Shown here: one piece after another, positions 3,718-49,264 of the stretch
Numbering within the stretch: the stretch's first letter is position 1
How the letters are laid out: the number at the start of each line of letters is the position of its first letter
Origin: Thermoleophilaceae bacterium
Lineage (GTDB): Bacteria; Actinomycetota; Thermoleophilia; Solirubrobacterales; Thermoleophilaceae
DNA length: 64,000 bases
Assembly: GCA_014534235.1 (NCBI GenBank)
Contig: JACVRW010000001.1
Coordinates: forward strand, 32,114 to 96,113
Reading direction: 5' to 3'
The notes under the pieces: generated by a model
What the model was told of the DNA's origin: nothing
What the model saw: only the letters and a program-made list of their open reading frames with translations
Database searches by the model: none
Made by a program: the position numbers and the translations under genes

Positions 3718-4814
3718 CGAGCGCGGCGCCCACCGAGATCGCCGTCCGCCGGGACGGAGCCGTGCGCATGGGCTTCTTCACGGACACGACGGTGTGCATC
3801 GGCTGCAAGTCATGCGAGGTGGCCTGCAAGCAGTGGAACGACCTGCCCGCCGACGGCTATCAGTTCCGCAAGGGCGGCTCGTACGACCACACGGGCGCGC
3901 TCGGCGCGTCGACGTGGCGGCACGTCCGGTTCGTGGAGCGGCTCGAGCCTTCGCCGGCGGCGCGGGCGGACGCGGAGGCCGCGCTCGCTGCGGGCGGCGG
4001 CGGGCACGTGCCGAACATCCCCGCCACCGGTGGCGGGCTCCCGAGGCCGGAGGAGCTCGGCGGCGCGGGCGGCGGCGGGCTTCCCACCCCGGAGGAGCTC
4101 GGCGGCGCGGGCGGCGGCGCGCGGCCGGAGGAGGTGCCGGACCTCGTCCAGTGGGCTGAGCAGAACGGCGACACGCCGGTGGTGGGCGAGGGCGACGTGG
4201 ACGTCGGGGCCGCGGTGGCCGCCATGGACCGCTGGCTCTTCATGTCCGACGTCTGCAAGCACTGCACGAACGCCGGCTGCCTCGACGCCTGTCCCACCGG
4301 GGCGATCATCCGGACCGAGTTCCAGACCGTCGTGATCCAACCGGACGTGTGCAACGGCTGCGGCTACTGCATCCCGTCCTGCCCGTTCGGCGTGCCGAAT
4401 CGCGACCCCTACGACGGCCGCGCCGCCAAGTGCACGCTCTGCTACGACCGCCTGCAGGACGGGCTCGAGCCGGCGTGCGCCAAGGCATGCCCCACCGACT
4501 CGATCCAGTTCGGCCCGTACGACGAGCTGGTCGAGACGGCCAAGGGGCGGGTCGTCGCGCTGCACGAGCGCGGCGTCGAGTCGGCCTACCTCTACGGCGC
4601 CGGCGACGAGCCGGGCGAGCAGCTCGCGGGCGGCCTCGGCGCCTTCTTCCTGCTGACGGAGGCGCCCGAGCGCTTTGGGCTGCCGGCGCGGGCGGATTCG
4701 CCGGCGCAGGAGAACGGCCCGTACGCCACGGCGGCTGGCCTGGCCGCCGCGGCGCTCGCGGCGCTCGGCACGATCGCGAGCTTCGCGGTCGCGCGCCGGC
4801 GGGGGCGCGGATGA
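3714..4814 (+). CDS. fdhB: Formate dehydrogenase iron-sulfur (beta) subunit with C-terminal TM helix
   Basis: 4Fe-4S cysteine motifs (CIGCKSCEVACKQW, CKHCTNAGCLDACPTGAI, CNGCGYCIPSCPFG, CTLCYDR); starts overlapping the fdhA stop; C-terminal hydrophobic helix. Confidence 0.92.
   Translation: MTSAAPTEIAVRRDGAVRMGFFTDTTVCIGCKSCEVACKQWNDLPADGYQFRKGGSYDHTGALGASTWRHVRFVERLEPSPAARADAEAALAAGGGGHVPNIPATGGGLPRPEELGGAGGGGLPTPEELGGAGGGARPEEVPDLVQWAEQNGDTPVVGEGDVDVGAAVAAMDRWLFMSDVCKHCTNAGCLDACPTGAIIRTEFQTVVIQPDVCNGCGYCIPSCPFGVPNRDPYDGRAAKCTLCYDRLQDGLEPACAKACPTDSIQFGPYDELVETAKGRVVALHERGVESAYLYGAGDEPGEQLAGGLGAFFLLTEAPERFGLPARADSPAQENGPYATAAGLAAAALAALGTIASFAVARRRGRG
4031..4125 (+). repeat. 42-bp tandem repeat within fdhB encoding GGGLPxPEELGGAG
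   Basis: ggaggagctcggcggcgcgggcggcggcg at 4049-4077 recurs exactly at 4091-4119 (period 42 bp = 14 aa). Confidence 0.85.
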
Positions 4815-42766: not shown

Positions 42767-43939
42767 GTGCCCCGCGTCGTGACGGGCGCCGGCGGGACGG
42801 CCGGACCCCGGGTAGTGATCGCCGCCGGCGGGACCGCCGGGCACGTGATCCCGGCGCTCGCGGTGGCGGACGCCCTCCGCGCGCGCGGCGCGTCGGTCAC
42901 GTTCATCGGCGGTGAGCGCGCCGAGGCCGAGCTCGTGCCGGCCGCTGGGTACCCGTTCCACCGGCTTCGGGTGGTCGGCCTCGACCGGCGAAACCCCGTG
43001 CGAGCGGCCCGGGGGGTGCTGCTCGCGGCCCGGGCCACCGGGCGGGCGCGGGGGCTGCTGCGCTCGATCGGCGCGGACGCGGTGCTTGGTGGCGGCGGCT
43101 ACGTGGCCGCGCCCGTGGGCGTGGCCGCCTGGACCCTGCGGCTGCCGCTGGTCCTGACCGAGGCCGACAGCCACCTTGGCATGTCGAACCGGCTGCTCGC
43201 CCCGCTCGCGAGCCGAGTGTTCCTGGCGTTCCCGCTGCGGTATGCACGCCGCGCGGGCGGCAAGTACATACTCACTGGTCGCCCGTTGCCGGCTGGCACT
43301 GGAGAGGCGGACCCGCGGGCCGCCCGAGAGCGCTTCGGCATCCCGCTCGACGCCAAGTGCCTGCTCGTGTTCGGCGGCTCGCTCGGGGCTCGCCGGCTGA
43401 ACGAGGCGGCGCTCGAGGCCTTCGGCCAGGCGGCCCCGTGCACGGTGCTGCACGCCTCCGGGCGCCGCGACCACGCTGAGCTGCGCCGGCGGCTCGACGC
43501 GCTCGGGTCGCCGCCGCACTACCGCCTCGTCTCGTACATCGAGCCGTTTGCGGACGCCCTCGCCGCGTCTGACCTCGTAGTGGCGCGGGCCGGAGGCTCG
43601 GTGTTCGAGGTCGCCGCCGCCGGACTGCCGGCGATCCTCGTCCCGTACCCGCGCGCCACCGCCGATCACCAGACCGCGAACGCGCGCCACATGGAGCGCG
43701 CGGGCGCTGCGATCGTGATCCCGGACGCCGAGCTGGACGGTGCCGCTCTCCGCCGCGAGGTGGCGGCACTGTTGGGCGCGCCAAAGCGCATGGCGGCGAT
43801 GGCCCAGGCGGCGCGCGCGGCGTCCAGGCCGGACGCTGCGGATCGGATCGCCGACGAGCTACTGGAGCTGGGTCGAGATCGCCCTCCGCGGGCCGGTCAG
43901 GGGACGCGCTCGATCAGCCGATCGAGGAACCCGGCCTGA
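42767..43939 (+). CDS. murG: MurG glycosyltransferase
   Basis: IAAGGTAGHVIPALAVADAL, GGGGYVAAPVGVAAW, LVFGGSLGARRLNEA, RAGGSVFEVAAAGLPAILVPYPRATADHQTANARHME. Confidence 0.96.
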   Translation: MPRVVTGAGGTAGPRVVIAAGGTAGHVIPALAVADALRARGASVTFIGGERAEAELVPAAGYPFHRLRVVGLDRRNPVRAARGVLLAARATGRARGLLRSIGADAVLGGGGYVAAPVGVAAWTLRLPLVLTEADSHLGMSNRLLAPLASRVFLAFPLRYARRAGGKYILTGRPLPAGTGEADPRAARERFGIPLDAKCLLVFGGSLGARRLNEAALEAFGQAAPCTVLHASGRRDHAELRRRLDALGSPPHYRLVSYIEPFADALAASDLVVARAGGSVFEVAAAGLPAILVPYPRATADHQTANARHMERAGAAIVIPDAELDGAALRREVAALLGAPKRMAAMAQAARAASRPDAADRIADELLELGRDRPPRAGQGTRSISRSRNPA

Positions 43940-44358
43940 GCGGGGACGAGCTTTTCTCGGGCCTCGTCGATGCGGAACCAGCCGGCACGGTCGACCTCCG
44001 GGAACTCGGCCATGCGGCCCGAGCGCGGGGGCCACTCCATCTCGAAGGTGTTGCTCGTGACCGCGTCGGCGTCGAGGTCGCCCTCGGCGGCGAACGCCCT
44101 AACGAGCTTGCCGCTCTTCTGCTTCAGCTCGCCGAGGTCGGACAGCTCGCCGGGCGGGAGCGCCGTGCCGGTCTCCTCCTCGAACTCCCGCAGCGCGCAG
44201 GCGCGCGGATCGTCCCCGTCCTCGTACTCCCCCTTGGGAACCGACCACACGCCGGCGTCCCGACGCGCCCAGAACGGGCCGCCGGGGTGCACGAGGAGCA
44301 CCTCGACGGCACCGCCCGCGAGCCGGTAGAGCAGGATGCCGGCGCTGCGCTTTGGCAT
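43897..44358 (-). CDS. NUDIX hydrolase
   Basis: RSAGILLYRLAGGAVEVLLVHPGGPFW; Nudix box PKGEYEDGDDPRACALREFEEETG. Confidence 0.93.
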   Translation of the reverse strand: MPKRSAGILLYRLAGGAVEVLLVHPGGPFWARRDAGVWSVPKGEYEDGDDPRACALREFEEETGTALPPGELSDLGELKQKSGKLVRAFAAEGDLDADAVTSNTFEMEWPPRSGRMAEFPEVDRAGWFRIDEAREKLVPAQAGFLDRLIERVP

Positions 44359-44439: not shown

Positions 44440-45879
44440 ATGGAAGAACGCCCGCTCGTGGGACGCACCCTTCATTTCATCGGGATCGGCGGCGCGGGAA
44501 TGAGCGGTCTGGCCCTCGTGACGAGCGCGCTCGGCGCGCGTGTGACGGGCTCGGATCGGTCCGATTCCTCGTATTGCGCTCGGCTTCGGGCCGCCGGGAT
44601 CGAGCCGGTGATCGGACACGATGCAGCCAACGTCCCAGAGGGCGCAGAGGTCGTCGTGTCGACGGCCATTCCCGACGACAACCCTGAGCTGGCCGCCGCG
44701 CGCGCGGCCGGCGCCCGGATCGTCCACCGCGGGGACCTTCTCGGGGAGCTCTCGCGTATGAAGCGGACGATCGCCATCGGGGGCACGCACGGAAAGACCA
44801 CCTCCGCGGCGATGGCTGCCCATGCCCTGCGCGAGACCGGGCGCTCCCCCGCCTTCCTCATCGGCGGTGAGCTCCGCGCCGCCCGGGCGAACGCTGGCTG
44901 GGGCGAGGGGGAGTGGGCGGTGATCGAGGCGGACGAGTCCGACCGCTCCTTCCTCAAGCTCGCGCGCGAGGTGGCGGTGGTCACCAACGTCGACCTGGAG
45001 CACCACGCCACGTACCGGAGCCTGCGCGAGCTGGAGCGGGTCTTCGCGGAGTTCCTCGAGCCGGCCGGGGTGCGCGTGGTCGGGCCGGGGGTAGAGCTGC
45101 CGGGGGTGTCCGGAGCCGTGACGTTCGGCTTGGAGGCTGGGTCCCTGCGCGCCGAGGGCCTCGAGCTGCTCCCGGGCGGCTCCCGCTTCGTTGTGGACGG
45201 CGCCGAGGTCGAGCTGCGCGTGCCCGGGCGACACAACGTGCTGAACGCCCTCGCTGCCCTGGCGGCGTGCCGGCCCGCCGGCCTCAGCCCGGCCGAGGCG
45301 GCGCCGGCGCTCGCGGGCTTCACCGGCGCGGCGCGCCGGTTCGAGGAGCACGGCCGGACCGCCTCCGGCGCGCTGGTCTACGACGACTACGCCCATCACC
45401 CGACGGAGGTGCGGGCCACGCTCGAGGCGGGGCGGACGCTGGGGCCGGCGCGCCTCGTAGCCTGCTTTCAGCCGCACCTCTACTCACGCACGCGCAAGCT
45501 CGCGCGCGAGTTCGGGCGCGCGCTCTCCGTGGCCGACCTCGTGGTGGTCCTCGACGTCTATCCGGCGCGTGAGCGGGCGGAGGACTTCCGCGGCGTTACC
45601 GGTCTCCTGGTCGCGGGCGCGACCGCGGACGCGGCGGGTGGCCGACCGGTCTGGTGGCTCCCGGGAATGGACGATGCCGAGCGCATGCTCCGCGGCGAGC
45701 TGCGCGAAGGAGACCTACTCGTAACGCTCGGGGCTGGAGACGTGGACTTGCTGGCGCGCCGCCTGGTGGGGCGGGGCGCGCGAACGGAGGCCACCGGGGG
45801 CGCGGCCGCGGGAGTTGAGGCCGGCGGCGCGGCTCCCGCAACGGCTGGCGGCACGGCGCCGGCGGAGGCCCAGCAGTGA
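44440..45879 (+). CDS. murC: MurC ligase
   Basis: LHFIGIGGAGMSGLALV, IGGTHGKTTSAAM, EADESDRSFLKL, YDDYAHHPTEVRATL, FQPHLYSRTR. Confidence 0.96.
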   Translation: MEERPLVGRTLHFIGIGGAGMSGLALVTSALGARVTGSDRSDSSYCARLRAAGIEPVIGHDAANVPEGAEVVVSTAIPDDNPELAAARAAGARIVHRGDLLGELSRMKRTIAIGGTHGKTTSAAMAAHALRETGRSPAFLIGGELRAARANAGWGEGEWAVIEADESDRSFLKLAREVAVVTNVDLEHHATYRSLRELERVFAEFLEPAGVRVVGPGVELPGVSGAVTFGLEAGSLRAEGLELLPGGSRFVVDGAEVELRVPGRHNVLNALAALAACRPAGLSPAEAAPALAGFTGAARRFEEHGRTASGALVYDDYAHHPTEVRATLEAGRTLGPARLVACFQPHLYSRTRKLAREFGRALSVADLVVVLDVYPARERAEDFRGVTGLLVAGATADAAGGRPVWWLPGMDDAERMLRGELREGDLLVTLGAGDVDLLARRLVGRGARTEATGGAAAGVEAGGAAPATAGGTAPAEAQQ

Positions 45880-46787
45880 CTGGCCCGCCCGCGGGCGTCG
45901 AGCGCGATTACCCGCTCGCCCGGCTCACCACGATCCGTACCGGCGGACCCGCGGACTTCTTCGCCCGGCCGGACTCGCCCGAGCGCCTCTCCGAGCTGCT
46001 CGCATGGGCCGATGCCGCCGAGATCCCGGTAGGAGTGGTCGGCTCGGGATCGAACCTCCTCGTAGCGGATGAAGGATTCCGAGGTCTCGTCTTGAAGCTG
46101 GACGGCCCGCTGGCGGGCATCGAGCTGGACGGCGGGCGCCTGCTCTGCGGGGGAGGGGCGCGGCTGCCGCAGGCATCGGCGCGAGCGGCCCGTGCCGGCC
46201 TGAGTGGGCTCGAGTTCGGCGTGAACATCCCAGGCACGGTCGGCGGGGCCGTGAAGATGAACGCGAACGCGTATGGCGGCGACCTGGCGCGGGTCCTCGA
46301 ATGGGTCGACGTGACGACGGCGGACGGGACCGAGCGCCGCCACCCCGAGGAGCTCGGCTTTCGCTACCGGCGCTCGAACCTCGGGCCGCGCGAGGTGGTT
46401 GCACGCGCCGCGTTCGCGCTGAGCCCGGCCGAGCCTGAGTCCGTCAAGTCGGCCCTGGCGGAGATGCGAGCCTCCCGAAAGGCCGCGCAGCCGTCGGGCA
46501 TCAAGACGTTCGGCTCGACGTTCAAGAACCCAGACGACGCACGCGCCGAGGGCAGCACTGCGGGGGTCCTGCTCGATCGAGCCGGCTGCCGCGGCCTGAC
46601 CGTCGGCGGCGCCCGCTTCTCCGAGAAGCACGCGAACTTCGTCGAGAACATGGGGGAGGCCACGACGGCCGACGTGGTGGCGCTCATGGCAGAGGGCAGG
46701 CGGCGGGTGCGCGAGCGCTTCGGGATCGAACTCGAACCCGAGGTTGAGTTCCTCGGGGAGGTCGACGCGGCGGGGCTCCGTCCGTGA
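45876..46787 (+). CDS. murB: UDP-N-acetylenolpyruvoylglucosamine reductase MurB
   Basis: TTIRTGGPADFFARP, GSGSNLLVADEGFRGLVLKL, GIPGTVGGAVKMNANAYG-like, GSTFKNPD, SEKHANFVEN. Confidence 0.96.
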   Translation: MTGPPAGVERDYPLARLTTIRTGGPADFFARPDSPERLSELLAWADAAEIPVGVVGSGSNLLVADEGFRGLVLKLDGPLAGIELDGGRLLCGGGARLPQASARAARAGLSGLEFGVNIPGTVGGAVKMNANAYGGDLARVLEWVDVTTADGTERRHPEELGFRYRRSNLGPREVVARAAFALSPAEPESVKSALAEMRASRKAAQPSGIKTFGSTFKNPDDARAEGSTAGVLLDRAGCRGLTVGGARFSEKHANFVENMGEATTADVVALMAEGRRRVRERFGIELEPEVEFLGEVDAAGLRP

Positions 46788-47995
46788 GGGGCGGCGCCGC
46801 CTCCGTAACCGGGCGCCGGCGGGCCGCCCGCCGCTCGGTTCGCCGCCCCGTGAACCGGCGCTTCGTTCGTCGGCTGGCCACCCGCCGCCCGGTTCGCCGC
46901 CTCGCCGCCGAGCGCCCGGTTCGCCGCCTGATCGCCCAGGGCGCGCTTCGCCGCCTGGTCGCACGAGGGGCAATTGGCCGGGTAGCCACCCGGCACTCCC
47001 GAGGCCTACGGGCGCTCTCGGTGCGGGCGAGGCGGCGGCTGCTCGCGCTGGCCGCCGTCTGCCTCGCGCTCGCCGGGGTCTTCCAGTTCTGGTTCCGCGA
47101 CTCCGAACTGGTCGACGTCGACCACGTGACGGTCAGCGGCCTGAGCACGCGCGAAGCGCCGCGCCTGCGGGCGGCACTCGCAGCCACGGCTCGTTCGATG
47201 ACCACGCTCCACCTGGACCGCGAGCGACTCGAGCGCGCCGTGGAGGCGTATCCCGTGGTGCGGGCGCTCGAGCTGAGTCCCGACTTCCCGCACGGGCTTC
47301 ACATCCAGGTGATCGAGCACCACCCGGCGGCGATGGCCGTCACAGACGAAGCGCGCGTGCCCGTGGCCCGCGACGGCACCCTGCTGCGCGGGGTGCCGGT
47401 CGAGGGGCGCACTCCGACGGTCACCGTCGAACGGGCCCTCAGGGGCGAGCGTCTCGAGGACCCGGCCGCCCTGCGCGCGCTCCGTGTGGCCGGCGGAGCA
47501 CCGGCAGCCATCCGCAGGCGGATCGAGAGTGTGGAGCGGCGGAAGTCGGACGGCCTCGTCGTGCCGCTGCGGGACGGTCCCGAGGTCATCTTCGGTGACG
47601 CAGTGAGGGTGCGCGCCAAGTGGATCGCCGCAGCCCGGGTGCTCGCCGACAAGGCCGCCGCCGGTGCGAGCTACATCGACGTGCGCCTGCCCGGCCGTCC
47701 AGCTGCGGGTGGCCTGCCGGCGGAGACGGTGACGCCGGTCGCTCCAGCCGGCTCCCCCACGTACTCGACGCCGGATGGGGGCGCCGCGGCGGACCCCGGG
47801 GCGCCCGGCACGGGCAGCCCGCCGCCCTCCACCACGACCGCGTCCCCGGACGCGGCCGCTGCGCCACTGACCGAGCCCGCTGAACCGGCCCCCGTTCCGG
47901 GAACTGCCCCAGGAACGGTGACTCCGGGGCAGGCGCCCGCGGCGCCCACGACCGGCGGCACCGCAGCGGACGGGGCGGCCTCGCCCTTGCCGTAA
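46784..47995 (+). CDS. ftsQ: FtsQ/DivIB-like cell division protein
   Basis: Arg-rich cytoplasmic N-terminus, one TM (LLALAAVCLALAGVFQFWF), POTRA-like VDVDHVTVSGLSTREAPRL, position murB-ftsQ-ftsZ; long Pro/Thr/Ala-rich C-terminal tail. Confidence 0.88.
   Translation: MRGGAASVTGRRRAARRSVRRPVNRRFVRRLATRRPVRRLAAERPVRRLIAQGALRRLVARGAIGRVATRHSRGLRALSVRARRRLLALAAVCLALAGVFQFWFRDSELVDVDHVTVSGLSTREAPRLRAALAATARSMTTLHLDRERLERAVEAYPVVRALELSPDFPHGLHIQVIEHHPAAMAVTDEARVPVARDGTLLRGVPVEGRTPTVTVERALRGERLEDPAALRALRVAGGAPAAIRRRIESVERRKSDGLVVPLRDGPEVIFGDAVRVRAKWIAAARVLADKAAAGASYIDVRLPGRPAAGGLPAETVTPVAPAGSPTYSTPDGGAAADPGAPGTGSPPPSTTTASPDAAAAPLTEPAEPAPVPGTAPGTVTPGQAPAAPTTGGTAADGAASPLP
46838..46999 (+). repeat. 27-bp (9-aa) imperfect tandem repeat in ftsQ, about 6 units
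   Basis: VRRPVNRRF/VRRLATRRP/VRRLAAERP/VRRLIAQGA/LRRLVARGA/IGRVATRHS; DNA core cggttcgccgcc recurs at 27-bp spacing. Confidence 0.8.
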
Positions 47996-48175: not shown

Positions 48176-49264
48176 ATGGAAACGGGCAGCTACCTGGCCG
48201 TCATCAAGGTCGTCGGGATCGGCGGCGGGGGCACGAATGCCGTCAACCGCATGGTGGACGCGGGGCTGAAGGGCGTCGAGTTCATCGCGGTCAACACGGA
48301 CGCCCAGGCGCTCGCGATGTGCGACGCCGATATCAAGCTCCAGATCGGCGAGCAGCTCACCCGCGGGCTCGGCGCCGGCGCGAACCCGGAGATCGGGTTC
48401 GCCGCGGCAAACGAGAGTCGCGACGAAATCAAGGAGTCGCTGAAGGGCGCCGACATGGTGTTCGTAACGGCCGGCGAGGGTGGCGGGACCGGCAGCGGCG
48501 CGGCGCCCGTGATCGCTGAGGTGGCAAAGCAGGAGATCGGCGCGTTGACCGTCGGAGTGGTGACCAAGCCCTTCGACTTCGAGGGCGCGCAGCGCATGCG
48601 CCAGGCGGTCGAGGGCATCGACCGCCTGCGCGAGCAGGTCGACACGATGATCGTTATCCCGAACGAGAAGCTGCTCGCGGTCGTCGAGCGGCGCACGAGC
48701 ATCCTCGACGCCTTCCGGGAGGCCGACGCCGTACTCGGGCAGGGCGTGCAGGGGATCACCGACCTCATCACGACGCCCGGCCTCATCAACCTCGACTTCG
48801 CCGACGTCCGGACGATCATGGAGGACGCCGGCTCGGCGCTGATGGGCATTGGCGAGGCTGCCGGCGAGAACCGCGCGGCCGAGGCCGCCAAGAACGCGAT
48901 CTCTAGCCCGCTGCTCGAGCAGTCGGTGGAGGGCGCCACCGGGATTCTGCTCAACATCACGGGCGGCAGCGACCTCGGCCTGTTCGAGGTCAACGAGGCT
49001 GCGGAGATCATCCAGGGCGCCGCCGATCAGAACTCGAACATCATCTTCGGGGCCGTGGTCGACGACACGATGGGCGACGGCGTGCGGGTCACGGTCATTG
49101 CCACCGGCTTCGAGCGGCCCAGCCGCCTGCCGCTGTTCACCGAGGACTCGACCGGTCGCCGACGCGAGCCGCGACGGCGCGACGTGACCATGGACGAACG
49201 TCAGCGCAGGTCGCTCGAGATCTCCGAAGACGAGATAGACGTCCCGTCGTTCCTGAAGGACTGA
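48176..49264 (+). CDS. ftsZ: Cell division protein FtsZ
   Basis: [14 protein letters not shown], tubulin signature [22 protein letters not shown]-like [12 protein letters not shown]-terminal [11 protein letters not shown]. Confidence 0.98.

What the first reader, a model, noticed from the sequence alone, without database searches (positions are those of the whole stretch)
46838..46999. Arg-rich 9-residue tandem repeat in the cytoplasmic N-terminus of FtsQ
Six imperfect copies (VRRPVNRRF, VRRLATRRP, VRRLAAERP, VRRLIAQGA, LRRLVARGA, IGRVATRHS) from a 27-bp DNA repeat give a highly basic, possibly amphipathic segment just before the TM helix. It could bind membrane, nucleoid DNA or FtsZ; no ftsA was found in the cluster. 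Repeat decay toward the 3' end suggests expansion from a single module.
Basis: partly seen in the sequence, partly recalled or inferred. Interest (0 to 1): 0.6.

Follow-up and report, generated by a model that had tools for sequence, protein, structure and literature searches.

The report
Repeated arginine-rich tail on FtsQ
A cell-division protein (FtsQ) of an uncultured soil-type actinobacterium carries a positively charged, mostly unstructured tail that was lengthened by tandem copying of a 27-base unit; charged FtsQ tails are already known, and the copying looks like a local, species-specific event rather than a new device.

Summary
A 27-bp tandem array lies in frame in ftsQ at the stated coordinates, with a seventh, unreported copy at 46811-46837. 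The periodicity exceeds all 20,000 codon shuffles. The gene is a genuine FtsQ (POTRA_1 and FtsQ_DivIB_C), in a mur/fts cluster of a Solirubrobacterales-type actinobacterial MAG. GTG 46784, overlapping the murB stop, is the best-supported start. In non-redundant relatives the FtsQ frame agrees with that start in 54 of 76 murB-linked loci despite very different tail lengths, so the tail is translated.

The repeat is not conserved. The congener's tail is 45 aa with no array. Of 119 tails tested across the order, three others carry tandem arrays, all with unrelated units (45, 33 and 12 bp). What is shared is net positive charge: all 65 tails of at least 10 aa are positive, this one the most (+26).

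AlphaFold calls the tail disordered (pLDDT 44-65). The array is not a continuous amphipathic helix. The best precedent is M. tuberculosis FtsQ, whose Arg/Ala-rich tail helix binds acidic membranes and FtsZ (PMC10036325). Most likely here: lineage-specific expansion of a tolerant, membrane-hugging basic tail. FtsZ or DNA binding is untested. FtsA absence is order-wide, with SepF present.

The parts
46784..47995 (+). ftsQ, 403 aa, GTG start overlapping the murB stop (GTGA)
   Evidence: Pfam POTRA_1 and FtsQ_DivIB_C above cut-off; fold match to FtsQ structures
46784..47020 (+). coding part of the N-terminal cytoplasmic tail, 79 aa, strongly basic
   Evidence: 21/27 identical to copy 1; inside TRF array 46814-46930
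46838..46864 (+). repeat copy 0, VRRPVNRRF
46865..46891 (+). repeat copy 1, VRRLATRRP
46892..46918 (+). repeat copy 2, VRRLAAERP
46919..46945 (+). repeat copy 3, VRRLIAQGA
   Evidence: falls in low-confidence helix, residues 46-60
46946..46972 (+). repeat copy 4, LRRLVARGA
46973..46999 (+). repeat copy 5, IGRVATRHS (most diverged)
   Evidence: mostly in low-confidence helix, residues 63-75
47012..47041 (+). juxtamembrane segment ALSVRARRRL, alignable with relatives upstream of the alternative GTG 47021
47021..47102 (+). predicted membrane-spanning helix region (model residues 80-106)
   Evidence: AlphaFold model
47117..47686 (+). extracytoplasmic POTRA and FtsQ/DivIB C-terminal domains (residues 112-301)
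   Evidence: Pfam; pLDDT mostly above 90
45876..46787 (+). murB, directly upstream, overlapping the ftsQ start by 4 nt
48176..49264 (+). ftsZ, downstream

Best explanation
The array is a lineage-specific expansion, by tandem duplication in units of 27 bp, of the N-terminal cytoplasmic tail of an ordinary FtsQ. Across this order the tail is a fast-evolving, mostly disordered, net-positive segment whose sequence and length are free but whose reading frame and charge are kept. Its most likely job is generic: arginines keep the N-terminus inside (positive-inside topology) and hold the tail on the acidic inner leaflet beside the divisome, with a possible weak contact to FtsZ as in M. tuberculosis. 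Shown: the repeat, translation in frame (by comparison), charge, lack of conservation, recurrence of unrelated arrays. Inferred: disorder (from a model), membrane contact (from charge and from the M. tuberculosis work). Not shown: any benefit of the repeat itself.
For: Array well beyond chance. Among 136 non-redundant loci, 42 of 76 murB-linked ones have their first start at -4 relative to the murB stop. The FtsQ frame is the one set by that start in 54 of 76, and in 38 of 56 where the gap is at least 60 nt (p = 1.4e-7 against 1/3), so tail lengths vary in multiples of three. All 65 tails of at least 10 aa are net positive (median +8); this one is +26, the highest. Net charge is higher in the FtsQ frame than in the other two forward frames. 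Tails do not align between genera, and the congener (L003) has a 45-aa tail with no array. Three other tails have unrelated arrays: 45 bp in L028, 33 bp in L066, 12 bp in L211. AlphaFold: tail pLDDT 44-65 against above 90 for most of the folded domain. M. tuberculosis FtsQ1-99: disordered apart from an Arg/Ala-rich helix that binds acidic membranes and FtsZ (PMC10036325).
Against: Codon statistics of the tail are weak: the coding score is near zero, and the same DNA scores slightly better on the minus strand, as expected for Arg-rich GC-rich DNA. One minus-strand frame is also as basic as the FtsQ frame. Retention of a V/L-R-R-L core in four of seven copies, and pN below pS between most neighbouring copies, could hint at some selection on the repeat unit. 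No population data exist for the species. The frame test treats related species as independent.
Confidence: 0.72

Rival explanations
1. The array is a selected, multivalent FtsZ- and membrane-binding segment, an extended version of the M. tuberculosis FtsQ Arg/Ala-rich helix, that helps SepF anchor the Z-ring in bacteria without FtsA.
For: M. tuberculosis FtsQ tail helix binds acidic lipid and the FtsZ GTPase domain, and that organism also lacks FtsA (PMC10036325). No FtsA over the cut-off here. Low-confidence helices predicted at residues 46-60 and 63-75. Highest net charge of 65 tails.
Against: FtsA is absent across the order, including species with tails under 20 aa. SepF is present. There is no acidic N-tail, no Pro-free 29-mer of comparable Arg+Ala content (at most 14 of 29, against 21 of 29 in M. 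tuberculosis), and no amphipathic ridge. The array is absent in the congener.
Confidence: 0.15
2. The array is not translated: FtsQ starts at GTG 47021 (or another downstream codon) and the repeats are an intergenic or 5' untranslated tandem repeat.
For: GTG 47021 is in frame just before the TM helix. Codon statistics of the tail are weak.
Against: The murB-ftsQ 4-nt start/stop overlap and frame preservation across relatives. Residues upstream of 47021 align with relatives. The unit length is a multiple of three. The other in-frame start, GTG 46850, would still include five copies.
Confidence: 0.08
3. The basic tail binds nucleoid DNA or RNA and works as a division-nucleoid sensor.
For: High Arg content only.
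Against: No nucleic-acid-binding domain found by Pfam. No conserved motif between species. Charge alone explains it no better than membrane contact.
Confidence: 0.04

Closest known systems
M. [quoted passage not shown]
   Same: Long, Arg-rich, mainly disordered cytoplasmic tail before a single TM helix and a POTRA domain, in an actinobacterium that lacks FtsA and has SepF.
   Different: M. tuberculosis has an acidic first 44 residues (net -14), a measured 29-residue helix with an Ala ridge, and no 9-residue tandem repeat described in the sections read. Here the tail is nearly all basic (one acidic residue), made of tandem copies, and not amphipathic.
FtsQ/DivIB family (Pfam PF08478 + PF03799)
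   Same: Domain order, gene neighbourhood and fold; matches FtsQ structures 8hhf, 6h9o and 2vh1.
   Different: Tail of about 79 aa, against 27 residues reported for E. coli in PMC10036325.
Other tandem-expanded FtsQ tails of the same order (L066/L194 33 bp, L211 12 bp; L028 45 bp, perhaps 5' of its start)
   Same: In-frame tandem arrays in or next to the same tail region.
   Different: Unrelated units and sequences, so independent events.
Disordered N-terminal regions of M. tuberculosis ChiZ and SepF (PMC9416665)
   Same: Disordered divisome segments that associate with acidic membranes.
   Different: Different proteins, no tandem repeat described; a parallel in how it may work, not homology.

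Membership tests
FtsQ/DivIB | POTRA_1 and FtsQ_DivIB_C domains above curated cut-off | tested here: met
   26.2 vs 23 bits and 24.9 vs 21 bits
FtsQ/DivIB | NCBIfam FtsQ equivalog model (a stricter subset, not a defining feature of the whole family) | tested here: not met
   PRK05529 matches at E 1.1e-6 but 28 bits against a cut-off of 353; Pfam domains, fold and gene order decide membership here
FtsQ/DivIB | FtsQ fold and single TM helix before POTRA | tested here: met
   model with TM-like helix 80-106 and POTRA; best PDB matches are FtsQ, E 7e-8
FtsQ/DivIB | mur/fts gene cluster between murB and ftsZ | tested here: met
M. tuberculosis-type Arg/Ala-rich FtsQ tail | long cytoplasmic tail (99 aa in M. 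tuberculosis) with high Arg content | tested here: met
   79 aa to the TM helix; 33% Arg over the first 82 aa
M. tuberculosis-type Arg/Ala-rich FtsQ tail | acidic N-terminal segment that pairs with the helix | tested here: not met
   one acidic residue in the whole tail
M. tuberculosis-type Arg/Ala-rich FtsQ tail | a ~29-residue Pro-free Arg/Ala-rich alpha-helix | tested here: inconclusive
   low-confidence helices 46-60 and 63-75; best Pro-free 29-mer has 14 Arg+Ala
M. tuberculosis-type Arg/Ala-rich FtsQ tail | nonpolar (Ala) ridge on one helix face | tested here: not met
   moment at 100 degrees 0.002 for the array; best 18-mer not above shuffles
M. tuberculosis-type Arg/Ala-rich FtsQ tail | binding to acidic lipid and to the FtsZ GTPase domain | not testable with these tools
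   needs vesicle pulldown, NMR or co-elution

The most novel reading that the evidence does not exclude
The array is under selection as a multivalent, length-tunable FtsZ/membrane tether, so that tandem repeat number in the FtsQ tail sets how firmly the Z-ring is held in FtsA-less actinobacteria; repeated independent arrays in the order would then be adaptive.
Probability: 0.07. Interest if true: 0.7.

Novelty: new variant of a known kind. Interest (0 to 1): 0.27.

Why it matters
It adds a clear example of how the cytoplasmic tail of an important division protein changes: by in-frame tandem duplication, with charge kept and sequence free. If the FtsZ-tether idea from M. tuberculosis holds in this order, the natural range of tails (from almost none to over 80 aa, with and without arrays) would be a ready test set. 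If not, it is neutral growth of a tolerant tail.

Tried and rejected
A mobile or genome-wide 27-bp element: rejected, the rest of the own genome and the congeners give only short, weak, CG-rich matches. An amphipathic helix: rejected for the array as a whole, and only 9 of 53 order tails of at least 28 aa have an 18-residue moment above shuffles at p<0.05. Ancestral module still present in congener G002: local protein alignment of tails has a weak signal (10 of 300 shuffles as good), DNA none (42 of 200), so undecided. Assembly artefact: unlikely, longest exact internal repeat is 17 nt. FtsA replacement: weakened by order-wide absence of FtsA with SepF present. A first scan of genome contigs with FtsQ found nothing; repeated with a MurB alignment, which gave named relatives.

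Full report
Observation. The window holds murE-murF-mraY-murD-ftsW-murG, then murC-murB-ftsQ-ftsZ on the plus strand (genes upstream of murC were named by reading the ORFs, not by profile). ftsQ (46784-47995, 403 aa) passes the Pfam cut-offs for POTRA_1 and FtsQ_DivIB_C, its family profile finds FtsQ chains in the PDB, and its model matches FtsQ structures first. A seventh copy (GRRRAARRS) precedes them at 46811-46837, so the array is 46811-46999. Lag-27 identity is 0.60 against 0.35 +/- 0.03 in codon shuffles, 0 of 20,000 as high at any lag of 4-15 codons. TRF scores of 134 and 106 exceed the best of 20 dinucleotide-shuffled windows, 86. The longest exact internal repeat is 17 nt.

Is it translated? 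GTG 46784 overlaps the murB stop as GTGA. The closest in-frame alternatives are GTG 46850, inside copy 0, and GTG 47021, just before the TM helix. To decide, FtsQ tails were collected from whole-genome searches and from named Solirubrobacterales and Thermoleophilaceae MAGs found through MurB. After removing loci fetched twice there are 136. Of 76 with murB directly upstream, the first start is at -4 in 42. The FtsQ frame is the frame of that start in 54, and in 38 of 56 with a gap of at least 60 nt (binomial p 1.4e-7 against one third; relatedness not corrected). Tail lengths therefore vary in multiples of three, which an untranslated spacer would not do. Residues directly upstream of 47021 also align with relatives. 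Codon statistics alone do not settle it, because Arg-rich GC-rich DNA looks coding on both strands.

Is the repeat conserved? No. The genus has three held genomes: the congener G002 (L003) has a 45-aa tail without an array, and G001 gave no ftsQ or murB match. Tails do not align between genera. Of 119 tails long enough to test, four have tandem arrays clearly above codon shuffles: this one; a 33-bp array in L066 (also fetched as L194; LLGAAQRIHLP); a 12-bp VGGA array in L211; and a 45-bp array in L028 that may lie 5' of its start. The units are unrelated, so these are separate events. The 27-bp array is not found elsewhere in the own genome.

What is kept? Charge. All 65 tails of at least 10 aa are net positive, median length 34 and median net charge +8; this one is +26, the highest, and sixth in length. 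Net charge in the FtsQ frame exceeds that in both other forward frames (p 8e-6 and 5e-10), though one minus-strand frame is equally basic (that set and the tail statistics still held some loci fetched twice). Copies differ at pS 0.42 and pN 0.36 over all pairs, ratio 0.85: at most weak selection on the unit.

Structure. The model of residues 1-314 (17 sequences) is confident for the POTRA and C-terminal domains (blocks mostly above 90) and the TM region, but 44-65 for the tail, with low-confidence helices at 46-60 and 63-75. A continuous helix would not be amphipathic: the array's moment at 100 degrees is 0.002, since nine residues turn the helix by 900 degrees, that is half a turn off. The moment found at 80 degrees is a harmonic of the 9-residue period, not a helix.

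What is known. In M. [quoted passage not shown] It binds acidic vesicles by mainly electrostatic contacts and binds the FtsZ GTPase domain, and the authors propose FtsQ as a second Z-ring anchor since M. tuberculosis has SepF but no FtsA (PMC10036325). The same tail was used to train a predictor of membrane association (PMC9416665). In this order too no FtsA passes the curated cut-off (0 of 41), and SepF is present in 18 of 21. But short-tailed species share the FtsA absence, so it does not single out this array. The window's tail lacks the acidic N-segment and the Ala ridge of M. tuberculosis: it may work like that tail through charge, but is not shown to be the same device.

Conclusion. This is a well-supported, in-frame tandem expansion in the labile, basic cytoplasmic tail of a normal FtsQ. 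The most likely effect is electrostatic hugging of the inner membrane and topology, with the copies themselves tolerated rather than required. A selected multivalent Z-ring tether is possible but has little evidence. Two searches of the open-access literature with FtsQ and repeat or tail terms brought up no report of tandem repeats in FtsQ, though only titles and abstracts of most hits were seen. Interest is modest.

Noticed in passing
42770-42840: 36-bp direct duplication (two copies, 82% match, TRF score 100) at the 5' end of murG, doubling the N-terminal GTAG glycine-loop region (PRVVTGAGGTAG / PRVVIAAGGTAG); the true start may be the second copy.
   Followed up: no
43897-44358 (-): A minus-strand ORF that reads like a Nudix hydrolase sits between murG and murC, against the direction of the mur/fts cluster.
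   Followed up: no
47760-47995: FtsQ ends in a long Pro/Ala/Thr-rich low-complexity extracytoplasmic tail (about the last 80 residues), beyond the conserved domain.
   Followed up: no
L028 (G034): 45-bp tandem array (RGQSPASHAGPVVRR) directly before or inside the ftsQ start.
   Followed up: partly
L066 / L194 (G147): 33-bp tandem array (LLGAAQRIHLP, three copies) in the FtsQ tail just before the TM helix, more hydrophobic than the window's array.
   Followed up: partly
4028-4119: 42-bp tandem repeat (90% match, TRF score 149), the highest-scoring in the window.
   Followed up: no
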